Shown here piece after piece: positions 12,999 through 26,378 of a DNA stretch of 64,000 nt (positions are counted from its first letter, which is position 1; every line of letters starts with the position of its first letter). The notes under the pieces are model-generated. The model did not search any database and was not told where the DNA came from. It saw only the letters and a program-made list of their open reading frames with translations. The position numbers were made by a program, and so were the translations under genes. Where the stretch lies: NCBI RefSeq assembly GCF_900155735.1, contig NZ_LT707059.1:77347-141346 (forward strand), read 5' to 3'. This stretch comes from Intestinibacillus massiliensis (GTDB lineage: Bacteria; Bacillota; Clostridia; Oscillospirales; Butyricicoccaceae).

Positions 12999-13101
12999 CC
13001 CTGCGTTGGTACCCTGCACAAAAAGGGGAAATTTCCATATAATAAATATGCGTGTATAGTATATGTTATGCGCAAGCAAATAACATCATGTGGAGGGTTA
13101 T

Positions 13102-13752
13102 ATGGAAAGCAAGGTGTACGGCTATGTCCGCGTTTCCAGTAAAGAGCAAAATGAAGACAGGCAGCTTGACGCGTTGCAGGAAAATGGGGTACCGCCGGAA
13201 CAGGTGTATGTGGATAAGCAGAGCGGGAAGGATTTTGCGCGGCCTGGCTACCGGCGCCTGCTGTCCCGGCTGCGGCGGGGAGACCTGCTGATCATCAAGA
13301 GCATCGACCGCCTTGGGCGCAATTATCAGGAAATCATGGAACAGTGGCGGGTTATTACAAAGGAAAAGCACGCGGACATCCGCGTGCTGGACATGCCCCT
13401 GCTGGACACAACGCTGAGCCGCGACCTGCTCGGCACTTTTATTTCCGACCTTGTGCTGCAGCTTCTTTCATTCGTTGCGGAAAATGAGCGCAACAGCATC
13501 CGGCAGCGGCAGGCCGAAGGCATTGCGGCAGCGCGGGCGCGCGGCGTCAAATTCGGCAGGCCGCGCAAGGATTTGCCGGTCCCGTTCGATACGGTGGCGC
13601 AGCGCTGGCAGCATAAGGAACTGCATATCAATGAGGCCGTGGAAATGCTGGGTATCTGCAAGAGCACCTTTTTCCGGTTACTGCGGGAGCAGCGGACAGG
13701 TTTCCCGGCGACGGTCTACCCGCCCCCATCACAACAGCAGGAACGCGCATAG
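13102..13752 (+). CDS. Small serine recombinase (resolvase/invertase type)
   Basis: A 216-residue resolvase-family protein. YGYVRVSSKEQNEDRQ has the catalytic serine, SIDRLGRNYQEI and the ENERNSIRQRQAEGI helix complete the catalytic domain, and a C-terminal helix-turn-helix (NEAVEMLGICKSTFFRLLRE) binds DNA. GGAGGG precedes the ATG at 13102. It ends 9 bp from the stop of the sigK 3' segment and faces it, so it lies outside the inserted element. I see no repeat pair it obviously acts on. It may be a chromosomal relic of another mobile element. Confidence 0.88.
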   Translation: MESKVYGYVRVSSKEQNEDRQLDALQENGVPPEQVYVDKQSGKDFARPGYRRLLSRLRRGDLLIIKSIDRLGRNYQEIMEQWRVITKEKHADIRVLDMPLLDTTLSRDLLGTFISDLVLQLLSFVAENERNSIRQRQAEGIAAARARGVKFGRPRKDLPVPFDTVAQRWQHKELHINEAVEMLGICKSTFFRLLREQRTGFPATVYPPPSQQQERA

Positions 13753-13761
13753 GACGGCGCG

Positions 13762-14262
13762 TCAGCTGTTGTATTTTTCAAACTCACGGCGCAGCTTTTC
13801 GACAGCTTTCTTCTCAATCCGACTGACATACGAGCGGGAGATCCCGCGCGCCTTGGCGATCTCGCGCTGTGTCAGCGGTTCGCTCCCATGCAGGCCGTAG
13901 CGCAGGGTAAGGATTTCTTTTTCCCGGTCGTCGAGGCAGCGGTCGATGAAGCGGTGCATTTGCGCGTAATGGTCGTTTTGTTCCACCTGAAGGAGCCCTT
14001 CGTCCTCGCAGCTGATAACGTCCATCAGCGCCAGTGAATTGCCGTCTGCGTCGGTGTCCAGCGCTTCGGACAGGGACACGTCTGAAGCGCTTTTTCGCGC
14101 TGCCCGGAAATGCATCAGGATTTCATTTTCGATGCAGCGTGCGGCGTATGTGGCGAGGCGCGTGCCCTTGTCGGGCTTATAGGTGCTGATCGCTTTGATC
14201 AGGCCGATCGTGCCGATGGAAATCAGGTCGTCCTGGTCGCAGGGCATGGCGTAGTATTTCTT
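13762..14262 (-). CDS. sigK: sigK 3' segment (sporulation sigma factor K, C-terminal part)
   Basis: This is the C-terminal part of mother-cell sigma factor K, separated from its start by the inserted element. It reads K-Y-Y-A-M-P-C-D then DLISIGTIGLIKAISTY and LATYAARCIENEILMHFRA (region 2), and ends with region 4, DDREKEILTLRYGLHG and REIAKARGISRSYVSRIEKKA. It has no start of its own in place; ATG at 14247 is internal. Joined at AAGAA to 26378-26176 it makes a 232-residue in-frame protein. In this state it lies downstream of, and overlaps by 40 bp, the recombinase gene on the same strand. Confidence 0.95.
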   Translation of the reverse strand, partial: KKYYAMPCDQDDLISIGTIGLIKAISTYKPDKGTRLATYAARCIENEILMHFRAARKSASDVSLSEALDTDADGNSLALMDVISCEDEGLLQVEQNDHYAQMHRFIDRCLDDREKEILTLRYGLHGSEPLTQREIAKARGISRSYVSRIEKKAVEKLRREFEKYNS

Positions 14263-15890
14263 AAACGGCTGAAACGAAAGGAGGAATTTTCCCGGTCAAA
14301 AACGACCCCATAGGGGCCGCCAAATTTCAGGTGGATGTCCAGATGTACTTCTTCGCGGGTAGAGCCTTTTTTGACCACGATGTGGTCTAAGATGGTGGTC
14401 ACCAGCTCGGAATTGATGCCGTTCTCGAAGGATAGCTCCTGTTCGAGAGCGGTGCGGATTTGCTCCAGCTGCTCCACAGAGCGCTTGCCCTTTTGCTCTT
14501 CCGCTTTCAGAAGCTCCAGCCGCTCCTCCAACCCTCTAATCTGCTCGTTGAAGCCGTCGTTTCGGCACTTGAACTCCTCGATGGTAATAGCCTCCGCCAT
14601 GCTCATCTCCAACAGACGGTCTTTTTTTGCGTGAATGGCGGACAAGTCCTCCTCGATCCGCAGAGTGTCCCGTCCATAGTCGTGCTCGTCGGGGACCGAC
14701 TGGATCACCTTCACCACCGCATCCACGATAGCCTGTTTATTCTGGGCCAGTTGGTCGAAGATGTGCGCCATGATCTGGTTCAGCTCTGTGGTGCGGAGCT
14801 GGGGCGCGGAGCAGGCCGCCCGGCCCCGGTTGCGGTAGACCCGGCACTGCCAGACCTCTTTCTCTCCCTTGGCGCTTTTTAGCACCTGCCGGTGGTAGCT
14901 GGTGCCATGCTCCTCACAGATGATCTTACCGCTGTATGGATAACGGTTGTGAAATTCGGCGGCGCTCTGGTGGGACATCATCTGCTCGCTGCGCCGTTTG
15001 TAGAGTGCGTTGGCCCGGTCCCACAGTTCCTCGGACACGATGGCCGGGATGGAGGGGTCCGGGTACATGACCCACTCGCTCTCGTCCAGGAAGACCTTCC
15101 GTTTGCTGCGGTAGTCCACCGTCTGGGACTTGTTGGCGCAGTACCAGCCCTTGTACTTTGGGTTGCAGAGGATGTGCCGGATGGTCAGTACGTTGAAGGC
15201 GTTGCCCTTCCGGCTGGTGAACCCCTCATCGAATAATGTCTGCGAGATGCGCCGTATGCCCATCTGCTGGTTGGCGTAGAGGTCGAAGATGCGGCGAATC
15301 ACTCGGGCCTCCTCCTCGTTGATGGTCAGTACGCAGTCTTTCTTATAATAGCCCCACAGCTTGTCGTTACCTAACACATGGCCATTTTTGATGGCCTGAC
15401 GAAAGCCGAACTTCAGCCGCTCGGAGAGCTTGCGCACCTCATCCTGAGCCACGCCGGCCATGACCACCAGACGGAATTCGCTGTCTGAATCCAGGGTGTT
15501 AATGTTGTCGTTCTGGAACAAAACCCCCACGTCGTGTTCCAGCAGCTCCTGGGTGTACTGGATGCTGTCCAGGGTGGAACGGGAAAAGCGGGATATTTCT
15601 TTCGTGATGATGAAGTCAAAGCGTCCCGCTTTGGCGTCCGAGATCATCCGATTGAAACTATCCCGCTTTTTGGTACTTGTCCCGCTGATCCCCTCGTCGA
15701 TATATCCCTCGACGTAGGTCCAGTTTGGCTTGCTCTGGATCAGCTCGGTATAATATTGTACCTGGTTTTCCAGGCTGTTGAGTTGTTCATCCTTATCTGT
15801 GGATACCCGCGCGTAGAATGTCACGCGCAATGGGAGGTCGAAGATGGACTTCCCGCTTCTCATCTCATTGCGTATTTTCAGTACATTCAT
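14223..15890 (-). CDS. Large serine recombinase of the sigK element (SpoIVCA-like)
   Basis: A 555-residue large serine recombinase that should excise the element in the mother cell. The catalytic domain has TFYARVSTDKDEQ (S30), ITKEISRFSRST and VVMAGVAQDEVRKLSERLKFGF. A recombinase domain (LWGYYKKDC, RIFDLYANQQMGIRRISQ) is followed by a zinc-ribbon region (IICEEHGTSYH, WQCRVYRNRGRAACSAP) and a coiled coil at about 420-500. The reading frame crosses the element end: the last 11 residues and the stop (14225-14223) come from sigK DNA. On excision the frame would instead run into the other element end and gain a 57-residue tail (about 601 residues). GGAGG precedes the ATG. Confidence 0.95.
   Translation of the reverse strand: MNVLKIRNEMRSGKSIFDLPLRVTFYARVSTDKDEQLNSLENQVQYYTELIQSKPNWTYVEGYIDEGISGTSTKKRDSFNRMISDAKAGRFDFIITKEISRFSRSTLDSIQYTQELLEHDVGVLFQNDNINTLDSDSEFRLVVMAGVAQDEVRKLSERLKFGFRQAIKNGHVLGNDKLWGYYKKDCVLTINEEEARVIRRIFDLYANQQMGIRRISQTLFDEGFTSRKGNAFNVLTIRHILCNPKYKGWYCANKSQTVDYRSKRKVFLDESEWVMYPDPSIPAIVSEELWDRANALYKRRSEQMMSHQSAAEFHNRYPYSGKIICEEHGTSYHRQVLKSAKGEKEVWQCRVYRNRGRAACSAPQLRTTELNQIMAHIFDQLAQNKQAIVDAVVKVIQSVPDEHDYGRDTLRIEEDLSAIHAKKDRLLEMSMAEAITIEEFKCRNDGFNEQIRGLEERLELLKAEEQKGKRSVEQLEQIRTALEQELSFENGINSELVTTILDHIVVKKGSTREEVHLDIHLKFGGPYGVVFDRENSSFRFSRLRNTTPCPATRTT
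14258..14283 (-). other. attL: element end at the sigK 3' side
   Basis: The core AAGAA is at 14262-14258 (minus sense). The element arm CTCCTTTCGTTTCAGCC is at 14283-14267, separated from the core by GTTT. It forms one half of the inverted-repeat attP rebuilt on excision. Chromosomal sequence ATACTACGCC follows the core. Confidence 0.88.
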
Positions 15891-16059
15891 GCCTGTTCGC
15901 CTCCTCTGTCAAGCACACAGGATACCGAAAAAGCTCCGGCAAGTCTATCACAGAATGCACCAAATCTTCCGCGTGAGAATAGGTGGATTTCGATATAAGG
16001 CCGAGGGAAAAAACGCGTCCCAGCAGGACGCTGACGACCTCTCTCTGTGCGCTCTCCAA
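15865..16059 (-). CDS. Small helical protein upstream of the recombinase
   Basis: A 64-residue open frame whose stop overlaps the recombinase start by 26 bp, so the two are probably translated together. It starts at TTG with AGAGGTGA 7 nt upstream and just downstream of a sigma-E-like promoter. It looks mostly helical (VVSVLLGRVFSLGLIS, then HAEDLVHSVIDLPELF). I do not recognise the family. Position suggests a recombinase accessory or directionality factor, which is only inference. Confidence 0.5.
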   Translation of the reverse strand: MESAQREVVSVLLGRVFSLGLISKSTYSHAEDLVHSVIDLPELFRYPVCLTEEANRHECTENTQ

Positions 16060-16079
16060 AATTGCATCACCTCTTTTTC

Positions 16080-16108
16080 AAAGTATGAGGGTGGGAACAC
16101 AAAAATGC
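16080..16108 (-). promoter_or_regulatory. Sigma-E-like (mother-cell) promoter for the recombinase operon
   Basis: On the minus strand GCATTTT (16108-16102) and CATACTTT (16087-16080) are separated by 14 nt. The Bacillus sigma-E consensus is roughly (G/T)(A/C)ATATT, 14 nt, CATACANT, giving 6/7 and 6 of 7 defined bases. Control of spoIVCA by sigma-E is known in B. subtilis; sigma-E use here is inference. Confidence 0.55.
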
Positions 16109-16130
16109 CGGGCGGCCAAGCCGTCCGGCA
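16101..16130 (-). terminator. Intrinsic terminator insulating the recombinase promoter
   Basis: Eleven-bp arms (16106-16116 with 16120-16130, one G.T pair) are followed on the minus strand by five T. It would stop leftward transcription coming from the insertion sequence. Its T run overlaps the -35 of the sigma-E-like promoter. Confidence 0.7.
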
Positions 16131-16177
16131 TAAAGATGTGGTATGATTATAGTATCAACGCGGAAAGGAGTGGTTTG

Positions 16178-17320
16178 ATGAAAAAGCGATTGACGCCAGA
16201 GGAAAAGCAGAGACTGGTAGCCCGTTACCAGTCTGGTGAACCGGTCAAGTCCTTGTGTGCGGAGGTGGGTGCGTCCAATGAGTGGATTGGACAATACCGG
16301 GAAACCAGGACCCTGAGCGGTCAGGTGATGACGCCGCGGGAGTTTGAGTTTCTCCGGCGGCGGGTACAGAAGTTGGAAGAGATGCTTACGGTATTAAAAA
16401 CAGCGGGTTGCACGGTGTCCGCACCCTTGCAGGAGAAGCTGAAGGAGCTGGAAAAGCTGTACGGGCAATTCAGCGTACACGTTTTGTGCGAGGCCATGGA
16501 GGTTTCCCGCGGTACCTTTTACAACTTCATGTTTCAAAGTAAGCCGGGAAATTCAGCCGCCGCCATGCGCCGTGAAGAGCTTCGGGTGCAGATTCGCGAT
16601 GTTTACGAGGAAAACAGGCAATTGTTTGGCGCGGGTAAGATTCGGGCCATATTGGTGGAACGTGGTCAAAGGGTCAGTCAGAAGCTGGTGGCGGAACTGA
16701 TGCGGGAGATGGGGCTTTCCAGTATCCGCGTCACCGCCAAGCGGGATTACGAGAGATTGCAGAGCTACGAGAAGAAAGCAAACATTTTAAAGCAGCAATT
16801 TCAAACGCAAGAGCCAAATCAGGTATGGGTCAGCGATGTGACTTGTTTTCGGCTGAAGGATCGATGGTTTTATATCTGTGTGATGATCGACTTGTTTTCC
16901 CGAAAAGTAGTCGCCTGTGGCATTTCGCAGAAAAACAGTACCCGGCTAATTACCACAACATTTAAACAAGCATTTGCGGAGCGAAGGCCAAAGAAGGGCC
17001 TGATTTTCCACAGCGACCAGGGGGCGCAGTATACCGCCTATGCTTTCCGCAAGCTCCTAAAGACGCTGGGGGTGACGCAATCATTTTCTAAACCGGGGAC
17101 GCCCCATGACAACGTCGTGGCGGAAGCCTTTTTTGCGTCCTTCAAAAAAGAAGAGCTATACCGAACCAATTATCATTCAGAAGCGGAGTTTCGACGGCGG
17201 GTCCTCGACTACATGGATTTCTATAATAACGGTCGACCGCATAGAACGTTGCATTACAAAACTCCCAACCGGGTTGAACAGGACTTTCAACTACATGATT
17301 TAGAAAGTAGCCGGAGCTGA
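16178..17320 (+). mobile_element. IS3-family insertion sequence transposase (single frame)
   Basis: A 380-residue transposase. An N-terminal helix-turn-helix (LTPEEKQRLVARYQSG, AEVGASNEWIGQYRE) is fused in one frame to an HTH_21-like segment and the rve integrase core. The DDE residues are in VWVSDVTC, FHSDQGAQYT and NVVAEAFFASFKKEELY. IS3 members usually need a frameshift between orfA and orfB; here the two parts are continuous. GGAAAGGAG precedes the ATG at 16178. I could not define terminal inverted repeats or a target duplication. It sits between the recombinase operon and the jet operon. Confidence 0.88.
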
Positions 17321-17695
17321 GGGTTCTAAAAACAGATTTTAATAGTTTCTTCTCTTAAAATGAGAGGAAGTGTCATCCGGACGTTCCGGAAACACGTGGA
17401 CAAAAAAGACCGCCGAACCCTTGTGCAAGAAGGATTCAGCGGCGCAAAGAGAGATGGAGCACAAACCAGATTCCGGAGTTCTTGTTGCGAAAAAGAAGCT
17501 ACGTCTAAACTTAAAAATGATTGCGCTTCATAGCACATACGGGTATAATAAAGTTGAAATAGGGAGAATACGGAAAAATCGGCCGAGTTCTTCCACCTAT
17601 TGTGTTGCCATTCGGCAGTACGTTTTGCTATTACGAATAATATAAGTGGAATGATTCCACCACCCGCGGAGAAATTCTTGGACGGAGGATTGGTA
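17321..17695. other. Region between the IS transposase and jetA
   Basis: No gene is supported. Several short open frames exist on both strands but lack ribosome binding sites and recognisable motifs. The right half contains the jet operon promoter and a 5' leader of about 140 nt. Confidence 0.5.
17521..17549 (+). promoter_or_regulatory. Probable vegetative promoter of jetABCD
   Basis: TTGCGC (17521-17526), 17 nt, TATAAT (17544-17549). This sigma-A-type promoter would express the defence operon in growing cells, unlike the sigma-E-like promoter of the recombinase. Confidence 0.6.
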
Positions 17696-19186
17696 ATGGC
17701 GTTTCATGCGGAACTTTTGGAAAATATCCCACAGACGCGGTACCTGTCGGCGGAGCATTATATACAGTATCGATCCATTATGCGGATATTTTATCTGGAA
17801 CACCAGCAGATGCACTACCAGATGGACAAAAATATGATCATCTCCCATCTCCGGGAAGAGGCAATCTTTGCCCAGTATACCCCCGAACAACTGAATGCCG
17901 ATTTGGATCAGTTGGTAAGCTGGAAAAATCTCACACCCATTCAAGACCCGCATAAAGTCTACACCGTCGCCGACTTTAAAAACCGACAGTTCCAGTACAT
18001 GATGACGCAGTCCGCTTTGGAAATAGAACGAATGACAATCACCTTGGAAAACCTCTTCACACGCACTGCCGGCCTCTCCTCCAGCGCGTTCCGCCGGATT
18101 CAGAGCGCTCTGCGTCAGGCAACTCATCTGGATGACATGTCATTGAAGGAAGTTAGCATATGGTGGCAGGATTTGCAGGAGGATTTTCAGCGTCTCAGTC
18201 AGAACTATCAGGATTATCTGCGTGAATTCTACAGTCCCAGTGCCGACCAACAGATGAAATCGACCGATTTTATCCTTTATAAGCAGCGGTTGATCCGCTA
18301 TTTGGAGGAGTTCATTCAAGAGCTTCAAAGCAGTTCCGCACAAATCGGCGCACTGCTGGAAGCCATTTCCCCCGCGCAGGCGCAGCACATCCTTGCAGTG
18401 GTTCATAAGAGTCAATTGGAAATTCCCCGCCCCAACTCACGGCACACACCCAATTGGGAGGCAGAACTCAAGATGCAGGATGCGGGAGTGTGGCAGTCGC
18501 TGGTCGGATGGTTTTCAGGGGAAAACGCCACCGCCAGACAGGTCATGGAGGTCACAAACGAAGTCATCCGGCGGGTAGTGCAGAATGCGTCGCTTCTGGT
18601 ACAGATGCAGAACATGGGCGTCAGCAACAAAGCGGAATTGCAGCATCTGCTGGGATTGTTTGCAAACTGCGAAACAATGGAGGAAGCACATCGGCTGTCA
18701 GCACTGGTATTTGGTGCCCAGAGCTGCCGACATTTTTACGTGAACGATGAAAAAAAGACGGAGCGAATTGACGTAAGTACGTATGAGGAAGAACCGCTGA
18801 AATATGCACTGGCGCCCAGAGTGCGCACCTATAAGCCTCGTATGGATCGGAGCGGATTTGCCGACAAGAGCGAGGAAAAAGCCGCCCAGCGTAAGCAAAT
18901 TCTGGAAGAGGCACAGCGGCTTCGCAGGCAGCTCATGGGGTATATCCACAACGGTAAGCTGGAGTTCGCCGCGCTTTCAGAGCCTGTACCGCCCGAGGCG
19001 CGGACAGTCCTGCTCTCCTGGGTCGCAATGGCGAATCTGAGCCCGGATCGGTGTGGACGCACGGAATATGGACAGCGCTTTACACTGCAAAAGAGCGGCG
19101 ATGAAACCTGTCAGATGCTTTGTACAGACGGGGTGCTGACGATGCCAAATTGCATCCTTCTCTTTGAGGAGACTGCCAATGTATGA
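17696..19186 (+). CDS. jetA: Wadjet protein JetA (DUF2397/TIGR02677-like)
   Basis: A 496-residue kleisin-like subunit of the Wadjet SMC complex. The N-terminal part (LENIPQTRYLSAEHYIQYRSIMRIFYLEHQ... region, with a winged-helix-like HLREEAIFAQYTPEQLNADL) matches the DUF2397 family, and long helices fill the middle. It bridges JetC heads and recruits JetB. GGAGG lies 7 nt before the ATG at 17696. It is the first gene of four overlapping or abutting genes in the order A-B-C-D. The family assignment is from motif recall; a profile search would settle the type. Confidence 0.85.
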   Translation: MAFHAELLENIPQTRYLSAEHYIQYRSIMRIFYLEHQQMHYQMDKNMIISHLREEAIFAQYTPEQLNADLDQLVSWKNLTPIQDPHKVYTVADFKNRQFQYMMTQSALEIERMTITLENLFTRTAGLSSSAFRRIQSALRQATHLDDMSLKEVSIWWQDLQEDFQRLSQNYQDYLREFYSPSADQQMKSTDFILYKQRLIRYLEEFIQELQSSSAQIGALLEAISPAQAQHILAVVHKSQLEIPRPNSRHTPNWEAELKMQDAGVWQSLVGWFSGENATARQVMEVTNEVIRRVVQNASLLVQMQNMGVSNKAELQHLLGLFANCETMEEAHRLSALVFGAQSCRHFYVNDEKKTERIDVSTYEEEPLKYALAPRVRTYKPRMDRSGFADKSEEKAAQRKQILEEAQRLRRQLMGYIHNGKLEFAALSEPVPPEARTVLLSWVAMANLSPDRCGRTEYGQRFTLQKSGDETCQMLCTDGVLTMPNCILLFEETANV

Positions 19187-20345
19187 GTTTCGCTATTTGC
19201 TGGATCGCTTTTGGGTCACACGAAATGAAAACAAAGAGCTTTATTTCAACGTGAAGCGCGCGCTACCCCAATATCGCAGATTTCTCAATGAGCAGCTTGG
19301 CTGGAACCTAGTGATCAACGAGTCCGTGGTCAAGCTGGAAAAAGTTCCGCCCAAGTCGATGCCCTGGATGGGCATCCAAGCGTTTCAAGATACGCTGGAC
19401 TACTGCCTTCTATGCGCCCTGCTGCTGTATTTATCTGATTTGGATGATGGGGAGCAGTTCTTGCTCTCCTATTTGACAGAGGCAATCGAACATTTTATGA
19501 CCCAATATCGTGCGGTTGACTGGACAAAGTTTCTCCATCGGAAAGCTCTGGTGCGGGTTCTTCGATATGCGCAGGAGATGGGGCTGCTCCTTGTGTATGA
19601 CGGCAACAGCGACGGCTTTGGTAGCGACCAAAATCAGGAGGTGCTCTACGAAAACACAGGGCTGTCCAGGCATTTTACGGTTCATTTTGGGCGTGATATT
19701 CTGCATTGCCAATCCATTGCGGACTTCGAGGCCTTTTCCTGGGAGGGTGATGAGGCCGAACGGGGACGGCAGCGGATTCACCGCGTCTATCAGCAGCTTA
19801 CCTTAGCCCCTGCATTTTACTGGTCGGAGGAGGAGCGGGGCGACTACGAGTACGTTAAGAATCAACGCGCATGGATCGCCCGAAACATGGGGGACGCGTT
19901 GAACGGAACTCTGGAGGTCTACAAAAACGGCGCCTTCTTTGTACTGGATGAAACACAGCGCTTTGGTATGGTGCATCCGCGGGATTTGGCGCTCTGCGAC
20001 GCCGTGCTTTTGCTCTGCGCACAGCTTCGGGAATGCGTACGACAGGGTGAATTCTCCCGAGAGCCGGATGATACGGTTCCATTGACGCCGCGAGAGTTTC
20101 GCCAACAGGTCAGCCAATGCCGTGGGCGGTACGGAAACGGCCTGGGCCGCCGCCTGCGGGAGGTATCCGACGAAGCGCTGTGTCAGGAGCTGACGACCTA
20201 TATGCGGGACTGGATGCTTTTGACTGAGCGCGGCGGTATGCTGTACCTCTGCCCCGCCGTGGCCAGATGGACCGGTAGCTTCCCTGCCAATTATCACGGA
20301 GAGATTGGAGATGAGTCGCTCGATGAACCGCTGGAGGATGCATAA
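19179..20345 (+). CDS. jetB: Wadjet protein JetB (DUF2398/TIGR02678-like)
   Basis: A 388-residue winged-helix (KITE-like) subunit. The start at 19179 overlaps the end of jetA (ATGTATGA). The order is an N-terminal helical region (YEFRYLLDRFWVTR), a mid-protein winged-helix part (VLRYAQEMGLLLVYDG), the family stretch EVLYENTGLSRHF, and a C-terminal VPLTPREFRQQV region. KITE subunits dimerise and bind the JetA kleisin and DNA. The first part of jetC overlaps its last 35 bp, consistent with fixed stoichiometry through translational coupling. Confidence 0.85.
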   Translation: MYEFRYLLDRFWVTRNENKELYFNVKRALPQYRRFLNEQLGWNLVINESVVKLEKVPPKSMPWMGIQAFQDTLDYCLLCALLLYLSDLDDGEQFLLSYLTEAIEHFMTQYRAVDWTKFLHRKALVRVLRYAQEMGLLLVYDGNSDGFGSDQNQEVLYENTGLSRHFTVHFGRDILHCQSIADFEAFSWEGDEAERGRQRIHRVYQQLTLAPAFYWSEEERGDYEYVKNQRAWIARNMGDALNGTLEVYKNGAFFVLDETQRFGMVHPRDLALCDAVLLLCAQLRECVRQGEFSREPDDTVPLTPREFRQQVSQCRGRYGNGLGRRLREVSDEALCQELTTYMRDWMLLTERGGMLYLCPAVARWTGSFPANYHGEIGDESLDEPLEDA

Positions 20346-23300
20346 ACTGGGGTTCCTGAATTTCTGGCTGTACGACAGAGAGGAATTTATCCTGGACAGC
20401 GGACACCTTCTTCTGCGGGGGGATAATGCTTCCGGGAAATCCATTACAACTCAGAGCTTTATCCCGTTTTTGCTGGACGGGAACAAAAGTCCTGAACGTC
20501 TGGATCCGTTCGGTTCCCGCGACCGTAAGATGGACTATTATCTTCTGGGGGACGGAGAGCATGAAGAGTCCACGGGTTATTTGTACCTGGAATTCAAAAA
20601 AGAGGGATTGGATGAGTACAGCACCATCGGGGTCGGTATGCGCGCCCAGAAGGGGAAGAACATTGACTTCTGGGGATTTTGCCTGTGCGACGGCAGACGG
20701 ATTCAAAAAGGCGGCGTGGAGTTGTACGAGACGCTGGGCAAGCAGCTTCTTCCTCTGAGCAAACAGAAGCTTAAAAACCTAATCAATGATGAAAATAACT
20801 GGGCCGAGAGTCCCAGTATTTATAAGCAGCTTGTGAATGACCGGATTTTCCGGTTTCGGGACGTTCGTCAGTACGAGCAGTTGATTCAACTACTTATCAA
20901 GGTACGCACGCCAAAGCTCTCCAAAGAGGCCTTTCGTCCCACGGCGGTAAAAGCCGTACTGAAGGATTCTCTGCGCGTGCTGACCGACGAAGATCTCTCC
21001 GCCATGGTTAGCACCATGGAGCGCATGGACGTTCTTGAGGATACGCTGCGGGATTATCAAACCGCGATGCGGGACGCGATGATCATTCGCAATGAGTATA
21101 CCCGCTACAACCAGTATATGCTGGGCAAGAAGGGGCAGGCCTACCTGGAGGCGCTGGAAAAGACTGTGCGGTTAAGCAACCAGGTAAATACGGAGCAGGA
21201 AACCTTAACGGCGCAGGAGGCGGAGATTACGGCCTGCGTACAGGTCAAGGAAGAGGCTGCGTCCCGGCTCGCACAGGCAAAGGCACAAAAGGAGGCTCTG
21301 GGTGAGGATGATCTCACCATCCAGCAAGAACGTCTGAAACGCGAGGAGGAGGATCTCAGGCGTTATCAGGAGCAGCTGGACGAGGGGACGGCGCGTGTGC
21401 AGAAGCTGCAAGAACAGATATACAGCCGGGAAGTCAAGCTCCGGGAGCTGACGCGGGCGGTGGAGGACATGCGCGCGGCGCTGCGTTCGGCGTTACGGGG
21501 GCTGGAAGCGCAGAATGCCATTTTGGAACTGGGTCCGGAGCACACGGATTACAGTTCGCGCCTCAAGTCGGAGCAGAACACCGACTTTGAATGTGTACAT
21601 ACCGCGCTCCAGCGGCGGAAGAAACAAATTTCAGAAACGCTATCCACCTTACGAAAACTTGAGCAAGCGAATGAGGCATACGATGCCGCCTGTCAGGCAT
21701 TGGATGAGGCCCGCACCGGGGAATCGGCAGCCCGCGTGACGCTGCGGGACGCGGAAACCCAAGAGCGGGAGGAGCGTGACCGCCTGATTGAGGGGATCGC
21801 ACACCGTCAAATTCTGAATGAAGAGCTCCTATTCTCGGAGGGCGAGCTCTTGGCTCTGCGGCAGGCTATCGCAAGATATGCTTCTCCCGCCGATTGGAGC
21901 GCTATCCGGGAAAAGATCGATGGCTGCACCTACCAAAAACGCACCGCTCTTGAAACTGCAAAGCTGGGGTTACAATCCGAGTTAAACGCGCTTCAAAAGG
22001 AGTGTGACGCACTTCGGCGGACTCAGAATCAGCTGCTTAACAACCCGGACCCCGTTCCTCTTCGCAACTCACAGATCGAGGCTACGCGTATCCAGCTCAC
22101 CATGCAGGGAATTCCCCACGCCGCATTTTATGAAACGGTGGATTTTTCTCCGGATCTGTCTCAGGAGGCACGCAATTTGCTGGAAGCACAGCTATCCGAC
22201 GCCGGTTTATTGGACGCTCTCATCGTCCCGGAGACGGCGCTTGTGCAAATTCAGGGGCTTCTCCGCCAATATCCGGACAGGTTTCTGCTCCCCGGCCCCC
22301 CCTCAGACGATCCGATCGCAGGTCTCCAGCCGGATGGTGACTCCCACTACCAGGAGATGGCAGCCGCCTGTTTGAGCAGTATTTCTCAATCTGATTTGAA
22401 CGCACATACCGCACTGCTGCCGGACGGGCGCTTCAAGTGCGGGATGATTAACGGTCACAGCCAAGCGGAGAAACCCGCCGGTTTTGTGGGCGCAGCGGCC
22501 CGCCGTGCAAACCGTGAGCGCCAATTACAGGCATTGGAACAGCAGCTGGCAGAAATGCAGGCAAAGCTGGACGAAAGGCATGCTGCTACGGTGGAATTGG
22601 AGCGGCGGCTGAACCTGCTGCGGGAGGAACGCGAGCACATGCCAACGGCCATCGACCTGGATCAGTCCCTGGAGATGCTCTCATCGGCCCGCAAAGCGTT
22701 GGTCGACGCAGAGGCCGCCGTACAAAAGTGCTCCAGCGCGGAGCAGACCGCAAAGCGCTTTGCCGCACAATTGGATCAGGAGTGCCGCACGCTGAGCCGC
22801 GGACTTCCATATGAAAGAGCCTCTGCGGCATACGAGGAGGCTCTGGACGCCGCAGAAGAATATCTGGTGCAGTTGACGGCTCTGTCGCAGACTGCCATGA
22901 AACTGGACTACTCTCGGCAGTCTCTGCTTGCATTGGAGGACAGCATTGCCGAACAGCGGGATCAGGCGGACGCACTACAAAAAACAAACCGCGGCACCAA
23001 ATCGCAGATCGAACGCGCGGATGCCGCCATACAGGAGATACAAGCCGTTCTAGATGCGCCCGAGAACCGGGAACGTGCAAAGCGGCTGGCGGAGCTTTCC
23101 GACGAGATCGAGCGTCAGCAGGAACGAGAACACTCGGCCGACAAGCGGACCGCCGTACTGAGCAGTCAGATCCAGAGTTCCCGCGACCAGCTTCAGCTCC
23201 GCCGTCAGGCATTCACGCAGGCCGTCATGGATGAGCAGGATTATGAGACCTATTTCTCCGAAGATTTGTCTCTGGGCTTACTCCCGCTTGACCGTGAAGC

Positions 23301-24369
23301 CGGCCTTGCCGCATGCGCCCGGGAGGCGCAGAGCAAAATTCAGGCGTCTGACCGCGAGCGTACACAGATGCAAATTGAAGATTCTCTGCGGAACAACTAT
23401 CAACAGCACAATAACTCTCTTTTAAGATATCAGCCCAAGATTGAACCTGTCTTTGAACCGCCGTCCCGGGAAACCATGCTGCGCCAGCGCCTGTGCATCA
23501 CGCTTCAGCGGGATGGGAAGGAGCTCTCCCTGCAGGAGTTCATCGCTCGGCTGCAAATGGATGTCGACATGACCACAACGCTGCTGGAAGAAAAAGATCG
23601 GGAGCTTTTTGAGGATATTCTAACCGAGACCATCAGCCATAAGCTGAGTGCGCGCATCAATGAAAGTCAGCAGTGGGCACAAGCCATGACGGCGCTGATG
23701 GGTACGCTGAAAACCTCCATGGGCCTGGTGTTCAGTCTGGACTGGAAAGCAAAAAAGGCGGAGGAAGCAGCGGAGCTGGATACCGCGCAATTGGTTCAGC
23801 TTCTGAGCAAAGACAGAGCCCTCTTAACTCCAGAAGATAGCAAACGTGTCTCCACTCATTTCCGTACCAAAGTAAAGAAAGCCCGTCAAAACGCGGCAGA
23901 GCAGGAATTGCAGACAAATTACGCCGACCTGATCCGTGAAGTGCTGGACTATCGGGATTGGTATGAGTTTCTTTTGTTCTATCAGCGGGACAGCGAGGGG
24001 AAAAAGGAGCTAACCGACCGGGTCTTCAACAAATTCAGCGGCGGTGAAAAAGCGATGGCCATGTATGTGCCGCTGTTTGCGGCAGTCTCGGCTCAGTATC
24101 AAAAGGGCGGCGAGAGCTGCCCCATGCTCCTGGCGCTGGATGAGGCCTTTGCCGGAGTGGATGACAGAAATATCAGCGCCATGTTTGAGCTGGTTCATGT
24201 GCTGGACTTTGATTACATCATGAATTCTCAAGCGCTTTGGGGCTGCTATGCCGGGGTGAAAAGTCTCGACATTGCGGAGCTTCACCGTCCGTCCAACGCG
24301 CAGGTCGTCACGATCCTGCGCTATCACTGGGATGGAACCGAGCGGGTTCTTATGGAGAACGCCACATGA
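20311..24369 (+). CDS. jetC: Wadjet SMC-like ATPase JetC (TIGR02680-like)
   Basis: A 1352-residue MukB/SMC-type ATPase that drives DNA loop extrusion. Walker A is GDNASGKS at residues 37-44. The long centre is two coiled-coil stretches around a hinge, rich in Glu, Gln and Ala. The ABC signature FSGGEKAMAMY lies near residue 1243, and Walker B MLLALDEA has D1277/E1278. This is the usual length for the family. The start at 20311 has GGAGAG at a fair distance; ATG at 20323 or 20338 is possible. In Wadjet, JetABC extrudes DNA until small circles stall it and JetD cuts. Confidence 0.9.
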   Translation: MSRSMNRWRMHKLGFLNFWLYDREEFILDSGHLLLRGDNASGKSITTQSFIPFLLDGNKSPERLDPFGSRDRKMDYYLLGDGEHEESTGYLYLEFKKEGLDEYSTIGVGMRAQKGKNIDFWGFCLCDGRRIQKGGVELYETLGKQLLPLSKQKLKNLINDENNWAESPSIYKQLVNDRIFRFRDVRQYEQLIQLLIKVRTPKLSKEAFRPTAVKAVLKDSLRVLTDEDLSAMVSTMERMDVLEDTLRDYQTAMRDAMIIRNEYTRYNQYMLGKKGQAYLEALEKTVRLSNQVNTEQETLTAQEAEITACVQVKEEAASRLAQAKAQKEALGEDDLTIQQERLKREEEDLRRYQEQLDEGTARVQKLQEQIYSREVKLRELTRAVEDMRAALRSALRGLEAQNAILELGPEHTDYSSRLKSEQNTDFECVHTALQRRKKQISETLSTLRKLEQANEAYDAACQALDEARTGESAARVTLRDAETQEREERDRLIEGIAHRQILNEELLFSEGELLALRQAIARYASPADWSAIREKIDGCTYQKRTALETAKLGLQSELNALQKECDALRRTQNQLLNNPDPVPLRNSQIEATRIQLTMQGIPHAAFYETVDFSPDLSQEARNLLEAQLSDAGLLDALIVPETALVQIQGLLRQYPDRFLLPGPPSDDPIAGLQPDGDSHYQEMAAACLSSISQSDLNAHTALLPDGRFKCGMINGHSQAEKPAGFVGAAARRANRERQLQALEQQLAEMQAKLDERHAATVELERRLNLLREEREHMPTAIDLDQSLEMLSSARKALVDAEAAVQKCSSAEQTAKRFAAQLDQECRTLSRGLPYERASAAYEEALDAAEEYLVQLTALSQTAMKLDYSRQSLLALEDSIAEQRDQADALQKTNRGTKSQIERADAAIQEIQAVLDAPENRERAKRLAELSDEIERQQEREHSADKRTAVLSSQIQSSRDQLQLRRQAFTQAVMDEQDYETYFSEDLSLGLLPLDREAGLAACAREAQSKIQASDRERTQMQIEDSLRNNYQQHNNSLLRYQPKIEPVFEPPSRETMLRQRLCITLQRDGKELSLQEFIARLQMDVDMTTTLLEEKDRELFEDILTETISHKLSARINESQQWAQAMTALMGTLKTSMGLVFSLDWKAKKAEEAAELDTAQLVQLLSKDRALLTPEDSKRVSTHFRTKVKKARQNAAEQELQTNYADLIREVLDYRDWYEFLLFYQRDSEGKKELTDRVFNKFSGGEKAMAMYVPLFAAVSAQYQKGGESCPMLLALDEAFAGVDDRNISAMFELVHVLDFDYIMNSQALWGCYAGVKSLDIAELHRPSNAQVVTILRYHWDGTERVLMENAT

Positions 24370-25640
24370 GCGGACAGATCAGCGAATGCGTTGCCTATTT
24401 TAAAAGTCGTCCGGGCTATCACCGCATTCTGGAGCAGATGTTAAAGAAATACAAAGCCTATGGCGGTCCCGTGGGGCAAGTCTCCATAGTCGATGCGACA
24501 GAGGAGGAGTGTGAGGCGGCGCAGGCCCTTTTCGGCAGGCCCTATGCCCCTCCTCTGCGTTTCAAGCTGCAGGCGTTCGACAATGCATTGCAGCAGACGA
24601 AATTCCAAGGCGTGACGTTGAAAAAGCTGTTGGAATCCTACTTCCATACAACAATACGGACAAAAAAAGAGATCCAACGTCAAGTCGAACTCGACTTTTC
24701 TGAGATGCTCACCCGCGTCTCGTCCGAAACGCAGAGCAGTGCCGGCCGTGATTGGCTCTCGCGCTTGGGTGATAAAAACGACGGTTACCAGCTCTTGCGA
24801 AAATCTATGGGTGATAGAACCGCAGAACCCGCGCTGCGTCAGGCATGCCGCGGTGTGGATTGGCTGGCGCTCCATCCAGGAGAAGTGGTTCGGCTGGCTG
24901 TGCTCAGCGCCCGTGCCACCTCGGACCCCCATGCACTGGACGGCGGCCGCCTTGCAGGAAAGCTTTTTCTGCACGCTCTGGCGGCTCTGGAAGGACGCGT
25001 GTTTTCGACCGTTGCAGAGGACCGGGATTCGCTGTATTATGAAGCTGGCATCCTCTGTGACAGCATCGCCAGCTCGGTGACCCAAGTCGGGTTGGTTTTA
25101 TGCGATGAAAATGGTGAACACCCGGCCTTTCGCGCATTTCGTGAGCGGCATGAGAGCTGTACGCTAACACTTATGAATCTTGCCGCACTCTCATCTGGGC
25201 ATAGCCCGTCCGGGCAGGCCTATCTGGTGGAAAACCAGATGGTATTCTCACAGCTCTGCGATCAGGCGAAGCGGTTTCACTCCCCTCTGATCTGCACCTC
25301 TGGTCAGCCGCAGGTGGCGGTATTGCGCCTTTTGGATCTTTTGGCGACGGCCGGAACACAGTTTTATTATTCCGGTGACTTTGACGGCGAAGGACTTTCC
25401 ATTGCGGCACGGCTCATGACCCGCTATCCAAAGCTGCTGCGAACATGGCACATGGCGCCGGAGGACTATGCACGAACTTGCCCGGAGGTCAACTTACCGG
25501 ACAGCCGTCTGCAGCCGCTGCGAACTCTGACGGATTTCCGGCTCACAGCCACAGCCGCTGCCATTTTGCATCAAAAGCGCGCCGGATATCAGGAATTGCT
25601 TCTGCCATCGCTGCTGGCGGATTTGACGGCAACTCCATAA
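24366..25640 (+). CDS. jetD: Wadjet nuclease JetD (DUF2399/TIGR02679-like, TOPRIM)
   Basis: A 424-residue protein that should cleave circular DNA once the JetABC motor has extruded it. The TOPRIM-like segment is VCTSGQP-type ICTSGQPQVAVLRLLD followed by YYSGDFDGEGLSIA near residue 337, where the acidic residues bind metal. The N-terminal domain (PGYHRILEQMLKKY) binds DNA. The ATG overlaps the jetC stop (ATGA). All catalytic-looking residues are present, so the operon appears intact. The DFD motif favours the type II (DUF2399) branch. Confidence 0.87.
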   Translation: MSGQISECVAYFKSRPGYHRILEQMLKKYKAYGGPVGQVSIVDATEEECEAAQALFGRPYAPPLRFKLQAFDNALQQTKFQGVTLKKLLESYFHTTIRTKKEIQRQVELDFSEMLTRVSSETQSSAGRDWLSRLGDKNDGYQLLRKSMGDRTAEPALRQACRGVDWLALHPGEVVRLAVLSARATSDPHALDGGRLAGKLFLHALAALEGRVFSTVAEDRDSLYYEAGILCDSIASSVTQVGLVLCDENGEHPAFRAFRERHESCTLTLMNLAALSSGHSPSGQAYLVENQMVFSQLCDQAKRFHSPLICTSGQPQVAVLRLLDLLATAGTQFYYSGDFDGEGLSIAARLMTRYPKLLRTWHMAPEDYARTCPEVNLPDSRLQPLRTLTDFRLTATAAAILHQKRAGYQELLLPSLLADLTATP

Positions 25641-25903
25641 CCTGTAAAAATCTCGGTCAGTGACACCGCTGCCGTGCTACTTCCCAGAAGCCCATTGTCC
25701 GACAGCACAAGTTCATCCAAATCGCCCCGTATTGCTGCCTGCATTGCCTGTGTGAGCCCCGCCAACGGAAATGTCGAATCCGTCTGAAGGACGGAACATC
25801 CAAGGACAGTATTTCCCAAAGCCATTTGACGCTCCAACAAAAATTTAATGTCAATTTGGTGGCGGCCATACAGCCAAACGCGCCTGCGCCCATTTTTCCT
25901 CAT
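25589..25903 (-). CDS. Degenerate resolvase-like small protein
   Basis: A 104-residue protein resembling only the N-terminal catalytic fold of serine recombinases. WLYGRHQIDIKF stands where YARVS is expected, so the serine is missing. QAAIRGDLDELVLSDNGLLGSS parallels the conserved D-R-L-G-R segment, and LTEIFTGYGVAVKSASSD the strand after it. The ATG has GGGGAGGC 8 nt upstream. It converges with jetD, overlapping its last 52 bp. A catalytically dead partner of the element recombinase (directionality or synapsis control) is possible; decay is equally possible. Confidence 0.55.
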   Translation of the reverse strand: MRKNGRRRVWLYGRHQIDIKFLLERQMALGNTVLGCSVLQTDSTFPLAGLTQAMQAAIRGDLDELVLSDNGLLGSSTAAVSLTEIFTGYGVAVKSASSDGRSNS

Positions 25904-25955
25904 ATTGCATGCCTCCCCACGATAGCAATCCTATTATGCTACAGATAGCATACGG

Positions 25956-25996
25956 AAAAAGCCGACTTTTGGAATTTATCCAAAAGTCGGCTTTTT
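25956..25996. terminator. Perfect 17-bp terminator hairpin near the right element end
   Basis: Arms AAAAAGCCGACTTTTGG (25956-25972) and CCAAAAGTCGGCTTTTT (25980-25996) are perfectly complementary with a 7-nt loop. In the integrated state nothing obvious ends here on the minus strand. In the excised circle the recombinase frame would stop at 26005-26003, 6 bp before it. Confidence 0.9.
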
Positions 25997-26157
25997 GGTG
26001 TGTCAGAGCGTCAACATCGCGGAATAGTGGTACTGCATTTCCCCTTGACAAATCCTGAATATCGCTTGTCCACTGGTCTTCCAGAAATTTTCTACTTTTG
26101 CTTTATCCCTAATCAAATCACGCAAAGCCGTATCAGTAAAGGCTTTGTGGGGTTTCT

Positions 26158-26180
26158 CTCCTTCCGCTTCATCCCTTCTT
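26158..26180 (-). other. attR: element end at the sigK 5' side
   Basis: The core AAGAA is at 26180-26176 (minus sense). The element arm GGATGAAGCGGAAGGAG is at 26174-26158. Its reverse complement matches the attL arm at 14 of 17 positions. Chromosomal CACATCGTC of sigK precedes the core. Confidence 0.88.
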
Positions 26181-26378
26181 GACGATGTGCGCCACCAGCC
26201 GCAGGTTGTGTTCGATCAGCTCGGTGCGGGCGTGCTCCTCCCCGTCGGCCAGCCGCCGGAGGCAATCCTGTTCCTCATCCGCGGACAGCGGACGGGGGAA
26301 GGTGCCACCGGAGGCCTGGGTCCGTAAAATGAAAAAGACGGCGCTGGCCAGCAGCGCCGCTGTCGCGGTAAAAATCAT
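26176..26378 (-). CDS. sigK: sigK 5' segment (pro-sigma-K N-terminal part)
   Basis: The start of sigK. The first ~28 residues are a hydrophobic pro-sequence (TATAALLASAVFFIL), then FPRPLSADEEQ and HARTELIEHNLRLVAHIVKK, which aligns with the Bacillus pro-sigma-K N-terminus. The pro-sequence implies membrane tethering and cleavage by a SpoIVFB-type protease, unlike C. difficile SigK which lacks one. In place, the frame runs into the element and stops after one extra glycine (69 residues), so this copy alone would be inactive. AGGCGGG precedes the ATG. Confidence 0.93.

What the first reader, a model, noticed from the sequence alone, without database searches (positions are those of the whole stretch)
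17696..25640. A complete Wadjet (jetABCD) defence operon is cargo of a developmentally excised sigK element
All four genes are intact and tightly overlapped, with Walker motifs in JetC and TOPRIM-like acidic residues in JetD. I know of skin elements mostly as degraded prophages or small recombinase-bearing islands; a full anti-plasmid system inside one is, to my knowledge, undescribed. It means the germline (forespore) keeps plasmid defence while the mother cell discards it when sigma-K is needed. The site in an essential sporulation gene would also fix the defence system in the lineage, since imprecise loss costs sporulation.
Basis: partly seen in the sequence, partly recalled or inferred. 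Interest (0 to 1): 0.92.

Follow-up and report, generated by a model that had tools for sequence, protein, structure and literature searches.

The report
Plasmid-defence operon inside excisable sigK element
A complete type II Wadjet anti-plasmid operon sits inside an 11.9-kb DNA element that splits the sporulation gene sigK and carries the recombinase and matching ends needed to cut itself out; such elements, and other defence cargo in them, were known, but Wadjet cargo was not found described, and it raises the testable idea that the system would destroy its own excised circle.

Summary
Window 17696-25640 is a complete type II Wadjet operon (full-length JetA2/B2/C2/D2 profile matches; JetC homologous to a solved JetC). 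It lies inside an 11,918-bp element that splits the genome's only sigK. I located the ends: a 2-bp AA core in the first Lys codon of LVAHIV-KK-YY (minus strand 26180-26179 and 14262-14261), flanked by 20-bp dyad arms. Joining at the core restores a full SigK (290 bits, over cut-off); 15 intact relatives have the same motif. The large serine recombinase belongs to a family that targets this codon across many Oscillospiraceae, in both orientations, with heterogeneous cargo. Two other such elements carry defence genes (AbiLi/AbiLii; a type III restriction enzyme), and a published sigK element (Bacillus cereus biovar anthracis) carries type I R-M. So defence in a sporulation-gene element is precedented; Wadjet there seems new. 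That the site fixes the defence in the lineage is not supported: relatives have empty sites, cargo turns over, and recombinase similarity does not follow host similarity. Excision, its timing and Wadjet activity are inferred. Most novel open reading: Wadjet cuts small circles, so it should destroy its own excised circle.

The parts
14263..26180 (.). sigK-intervening element, 11,918 bp between the two AA cores
   Evidence: attL/attR alignment over many loci, dyad test, empty sites in relatives
26158..26192 (-). attL: end of the sigK 5' part, core AA at 26180-26179, P' arm GAAGGGATGAAGCGGAAGGA
14249..14282 (-). attR: P arm TCCTTTCGTTTCAGCCGTTT, core AA at 14262-14261, then the sigK 3' part
26179..26378 (-). 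sigK 5' part (frame runs on to a stop at 26169 inside the element)
   Evidence: NCBIfam SigK positions 2-67, 4.9e-17
13762..14262 (-). sigK 3' part
   Evidence: NCBIfam SigK positions 66-226, 3e-61
14223..15890 (-). large serine recombinase, 555 aa, last codons inside sigK
   Evidence: Pfam Resolvase, Recombinase, Zn_ribbon_recom; up to 87-88% identical relatives at the same codon
15865..16059 (-). small ORF (64 aa, TTG start) overlapping the recombinase start; candidate directionality or accessory factor, by position only
   Evidence: found in 58 sequences of the element set, alignment A5; two predicted helices
16178..17320 (+). IS3-family transposase, single copy in the genome
   Evidence: NF033516 6.6e-94
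17696..19186 (+). jetA (DUF2397)
   Evidence: PADLOC JetA2 2.2e-172
19179..20345 (+). jetB (DUF2398)
   Evidence: PADLOC JetB2 6e-134
20323..24369 (+). jetC (SMC-like ATPase)
   Evidence: PADLOC JetC2 E=0; PDB 9qe0 JetC 1.2e-168
24366..25640 (+). jetD (DUF3323/DUF2399, TOPRIM-like nuclease)
   Evidence: PADLOC JetD2 2.4e-133, Pfam
25589..25903 (-). small convergent gene overlapping the jetD end; faintly resolvase-like by eye, without a catalytic Ser; unnamed
   Evidence: 47% identical homologue in the same place beside the related G023 Wadjet; no family match

Best explanation
The window holds a sigK-intervening element without recognised phage genes, whose large serine recombinase targets the first Lys codon of the HIV-KK-YY motif (about codon 67). 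Shown by sequence: a 2-bp AA core with 20-bp dyad arms at the two ends, a full SigK on joining, and an empty site in relatives. Inferred: in the mother cell the recombinase, with a directionality factor (perhaps the small ORF encoded with it), excises an 11.9-kb circle so that sigma-K can be made, while vegetative cells and the forespore keep the element. The cargo is a complete type II Wadjet module, taken up as a unit with its small convergent neighbour gene. In vegetative cells it should act as any Wadjet: JetABC extrudes DNA loops and, on closed circles below roughly 50-100 kb, triggers cleavage by JetD. The sigK location serves the element (a conserved site whose interruption is harmless because excision is programmed) more than the defence system; cargo is exchangeable between elements.
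For: Type II Wadjet by full-length profiles and PDB homology. Core AA in 46 of 47 attL and 59 of 60 attR ends, dyad centred on that core (mean 13.3 of 20 matches over 24 pairs against 6.2 in shuffles; 15 of 20 here, P about 1.5e-4). 15 intact relatives read KKYY at the site. Joined SigK scores 290 bits, cut-off 252. Most of 80 recombinase relatives abut sigK at the same codon. Shared DNA is confined to the two ends. The related Wadjet of G023 sits elsewhere in its chromosome with the same small neighbour gene. Excision of sigK insertions in sporulation is shown for other species (PMC10745906, PMC5025042); a type II Wadjet cleaves circular DNA in vitro (PMC12647877).
Against: No excision, timing or restriction data for this organism. 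The directionality factor is not identified. The IS3 copy shows that the element takes insertions, so loss of activity in some part cannot be excluded. Only one genome carries this combination.
Confidence: 0.82

Rival explanations
1. The element no longer excises: sigK is permanently broken, the strain cannot make sigma-K, and Wadjet sits in an ordinary genomic island.
For: IS3 insertion in the element; no excision data.
Against: Recombinase, both att sites and both sigK parts are intact and in frame on joining; SpoIVA present over its cut-off.
Confidence: 0.1
2. The Wadjet operon was placed between the sigK parts by misassembly of a metagenome or draft contig.
For: The genome is in 34 contigs with 2.7% estimated contamination, and a transposase lies next to the operon.
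Against: The IS is single copy, the contig runs on for at least 141 kb, and the DNA beyond jetD matches the sigK-side end of other elements.
Confidence: 0.03
3. The sigK position is adaptive for the defence itself: programmed loss in the mother cell, or locking to an essential gene, is what keeps Wadjet there.
Against: Relatives have empty sites; most cargo of sister elements is not defence by the merged profile scans; cargo is swapped; other type II Wadjets of the order and class are not in sigK elements as far as resolved.
Confidence: 0.08

Closest known systems
Island IV, sigK insertion of Bacillus cereus biovar anthracis (PMC10745906)
   Same: Non-prophage element in sigK at almost the same place (nt 195), encodes a serine recombinase next to sigK and a defence system (type I R-M); excision shown
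   Different: 22 kb, other recombinase position (next to the 5' part), other repeats; cargo is R-M, not Wadjet
gin element in gerE of B. cereus ATCC 10987 (PMC5595907)
   Same: Non-phage element interrupting a sporulation gene, with serine recombinase and R-M cargo
   Different: Other gene, three recombinases, directionality factor GirX known
skin of B. subtilis and skinCd of Clostridioides difficile (PMC5025042)
   Same: Interrupt sigK, excised by a serine recombinase in the mother cell
   Different: Prophage-like, other insertion sites; no Wadjet reported
Type II Wadjet (for example Neobacillus vireti nvJET, PMC12647877; JetC of PDB 9qe0)
   Same: All four proteins full length with the type II domain set and motifs
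   Different: Here inside an excisable element; extra small convergent gene at the jetD end, shared with G023

Membership tests
Wadjet type II | jetA-jetB-jetC-jetD in order with type II profiles | tested here: met
Wadjet type II | SMC ATPase motifs in JetC and TOPRIM-like motif in JetD | tested here: met
   read from the translation; SbcC_Walker_B match; 9qe0 homology
Wadjet type II | Restriction of small circular plasmids | not testable with these tools
   needs a transformation or cleavage assay
sigK-intervening (skin-type) element | Splits sigK so that precise joining restores the reading frame | tested here: met
sigK-intervening (skin-type) element | Encodes a serine recombinase next to sigK and has matching recombination sites at both ends | tested here: met
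sigK-intervening (skin-type) element | Empty site in relatives | tested here: met
   15 intact relatives, one of the same genus
sigK-intervening (skin-type) element | Excision in the mother cell during sporulation | not testable with these tools
   needs sporulating cultures
sigK-intervening (skin-type) element | Recombination directionality factor | tested here: inconclusive
   a conserved small ORF overlaps the recombinase start; function unknown
Prophage (as many skin elements are) | Phage structural or packaging genes | tested here: not met
   coding space is filled by the recombinase, a small ORF, IS3, jetABCD and one small gene; PHROGs was not run

The most novel reading that the evidence does not exclude
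The excised 11.9-kb circle is itself a Wadjet substrate. Wadjet recognises small closed circles regardless of sequence, so in the mother cell JetABCD would linearise the circle that encodes it. That would make excision irreversible (no reintegration into sigK) and make spontaneous excision in growing cells a dead end for the element, unless the circle is protected or Wadjet is off at that time.
Probability: 0.3. Interest if true: 0.75.

Novelty: new variant of a known kind. Interest (0 to 1): 0.58.

Why it matters
It joins two well-studied things in a way I found in no paper held: a developmentally excised element, and a defence system whose target is exactly the kind of molecule that excision makes. 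It makes a direct test possible: does a Wadjet-bearing element restrict its own circular form? The comparison also outlines a large family of codon-67 sigK elements in Oscillospiraceae (not described in the papers held, to my knowledge) with swappable cargo, some of it defence, and shows genomes in which sigK is split in three by two different recombinases, so that two excisions would be needed for sigma-K.

Tried and rejected
First junction guess (HIVKKFKKYY, crossover just before TTTAAG) was rejected: attL and attR share no dinucleotide there, and intact relatives read HIVKKYY. JetC in IMG/VR viral contigs: no match to the patterns. The recombinase in viral contigs: 18 relatives, one clearly at sigK (L130), none with Jet genes. 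Structure of the small gene beside jetD: single-sequence model useless (pLDDT 38), so not searched. Wider occurrence of that gene: one weak hit besides the window in 391 class genomes, so its link to Wadjet rests on two loci. PDB match for JetD by sequence: none meaningful. The PADLOC survey of cargo is partial: merged scans list only 25 families, and only some hits were pinned to a locus; hits not pinned (Cas3, DRT reverse transcriptases, PDC-S01, spbK) are not claimed. Sigma-70 promoter and terminator scans gave nothing clear.

Full report
1. Observation. The four genes at 17696-25640 are a complete type II Wadjet operon. PADLOC models of JetA2, JetB2, JetC2 and JetD2 match end to end; NCBIfam TIGR02677, TIGR02678, TIGR02680 and TIGR02679 are all over cut-off; JetC is homologous over its whole length to the JetC of PDB 9qe0 (1.2e-168). 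Reading frames overlap (19179/19186, 20323/20345, 24366/24369), and the ATPase and TOPRIM-like motifs are intact.

2. The element. On either side lie the 5' and 3' parts of sigK, the only sigK in the genome (the stronger hit there covers positions 17-225 and fits sigE). A large serine recombinase (14223-15890) is at the 3' sigK side, its last codons inside sigK. Aligning the ends of this element with those of its relatives gave the half-sites. Intact sigK of 15 relatives, one of the same genus, reads VAH-[I/V][V/I]-KK-YY here, which places the crossover in the first Lys codon. The core is AA in 46 of 47 attL and 59 of 60 attR ends; the exceptions come from one locus (L043) where another sigma gene was picked up. 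The arms form a dyad centred on that core: mean 13.3 of 20 matches over 24 pairs (two of them duplicate records) against 6.2 in shuffles, and 15 of 20 here. Excision would remove 11,918 bp and give a 232-aa SigK scoring 290 bits (cut-off 252).

3. The family. 80 relatives of the recombinase were read from genome contigs, mostly Oscillospiraceae; most abut a sigK piece at the same codon, in either orientation. Recombinase identity to the window reaches 87% while sigK identity stays near 58-60%, with no positive correlation (Spearman -0.24, p 0.17): the elements appear to move between hosts. A small ORF overlapping the recombinase start is found in 58 sequences and is my candidate for a directionality or accessory factor, by position only. 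Shared DNA is confined to the recombinase end and, in two loci, about 100-130 bp at the other end. Cargo is nearly all different: 327 clusters from 425 proteins, much of it not defence (S-layer proteins, metabolic enzymes). Defence cargo pinned to a locus: AbiLi plus AbiLii in the complete element of L022 and a type III restriction enzyme in L079 (the far end of that element was not reached). None of the 80 loci has jet genes in the stretch read.

4. Where the Wadjet came from. Type II JetC is rare: 6 of 394 genomes of the order and 13 of 391 of the class, the window's own counted in both. In the other 17 genomes sigK is intact and elsewhere, not found, or on other contigs; cases with sigK broken or partial on other contigs (G389, G768, G819) cannot be fully resolved. 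In one (G622) a distant Wadjet lies directly downstream of an intact sigK, possibly chance. The closest relative (G023: JetA 70%, JetB 68%, JetC 60%, JetD 54%) lies between housekeeping genes (topA, dprA and an rRNA-methyltransferase-like gene on one side, lysS and greA on the other, by reading the translations), without this recombinase in the 20 kb read, and has the same small convergent gene at the jetD end. So jetABCD plus that gene look like a cassette taken up by the element.

5. How it most likely works. Shown by sequence: the parts, the site, the restored gene, the empty site. From published work: sigK insertions with serine recombinases are excised in sporulation (PMC10745906; PMC5025042); gin needs the small factor GirX for excision (PMC5595907); Wadjet cleaves circular DNA below about 50-100 kb (PMC10586767); a type II complex cleaves circles in vitro (PMC12647877). 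Inferred: all growing cells and forespores keep the defence; mother cells lose it without fitness meaning of their own, because they lyse. The idea that the site fixes the defence is weak, because precise loss is costless and relatives are empty at this codon.

6. Known versus new. Defence cargo in a sporulation-gene element is known (type I R-M in sigK at nt 195; R-M in gerE). Wadjet in one was found in no paper held. I rate it a new variant of a known kind. The reading most worth testing is self-restriction of the excised circle.

7. Limits. No expression, excision or restriction data. One genome carries this combination. The directionality factor, timing and Wadjet activity are inferred. 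The defence survey of the family is partial, and most papers of subscription journals are not in the library.

Noticed in passing
L058:5388-18283; also L086; further loci with sigK cut near codon 114 (for example L013, L014, L021, L027, L039, L041, L045, L068): sigK is split in three: a codon-67 element and a second element near codon 114 with a different large serine recombinase (about 570 aa in L058), so two excisions would be needed to rebuild sigma-K.
   Followed up: partly
G049 (same genus), C1:194044-272815: Its sigK is uninterrupted at codon 67 but the two parts meet near codon 114 about 78 kb apart, a much larger insertion of unknown content.
   Followed up: no
L022:6839-12081: A small complete codon-67 sigK element carrying AbiLi and AbiLii genes, a second defence-bearing member of the same recombinase family.
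   Followed up: partly
window 25589-25903 and L126:5893-6192: A small gene convergent with and overlapping jetD is conserved (47% identity) beside two related Wadjet operons in different genera; it could be an extra Wadjet-associated component.
   Followed up: partly
L164:3155-12331 (G622): A distant type II Wadjet operon lies directly downstream of an intact sigK on the same strand, with a broken subtilisin-like gene between; could be chance.
   Followed up: no
codon-67 loci: The same recombinase family inserts in both orientations relative to sigK (next to the 3' part or next to the 5' part), although the inferred AA core is not symmetric; how orientation is decided is unexplained.
   Followed up: no
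window 26110-26160 (-); L022:7060-7100: A hairpin just inside the sigK-side end keeps its form while its sequence differs between elements; possibly a terminator for sigK 5' transcription (by eye).
   Followed up: no
window 13090-13752 (+): A second, small resolvase gene lies directly outside the element, downstream of the sigK 3' part and convergent with it.
   Followed up: no
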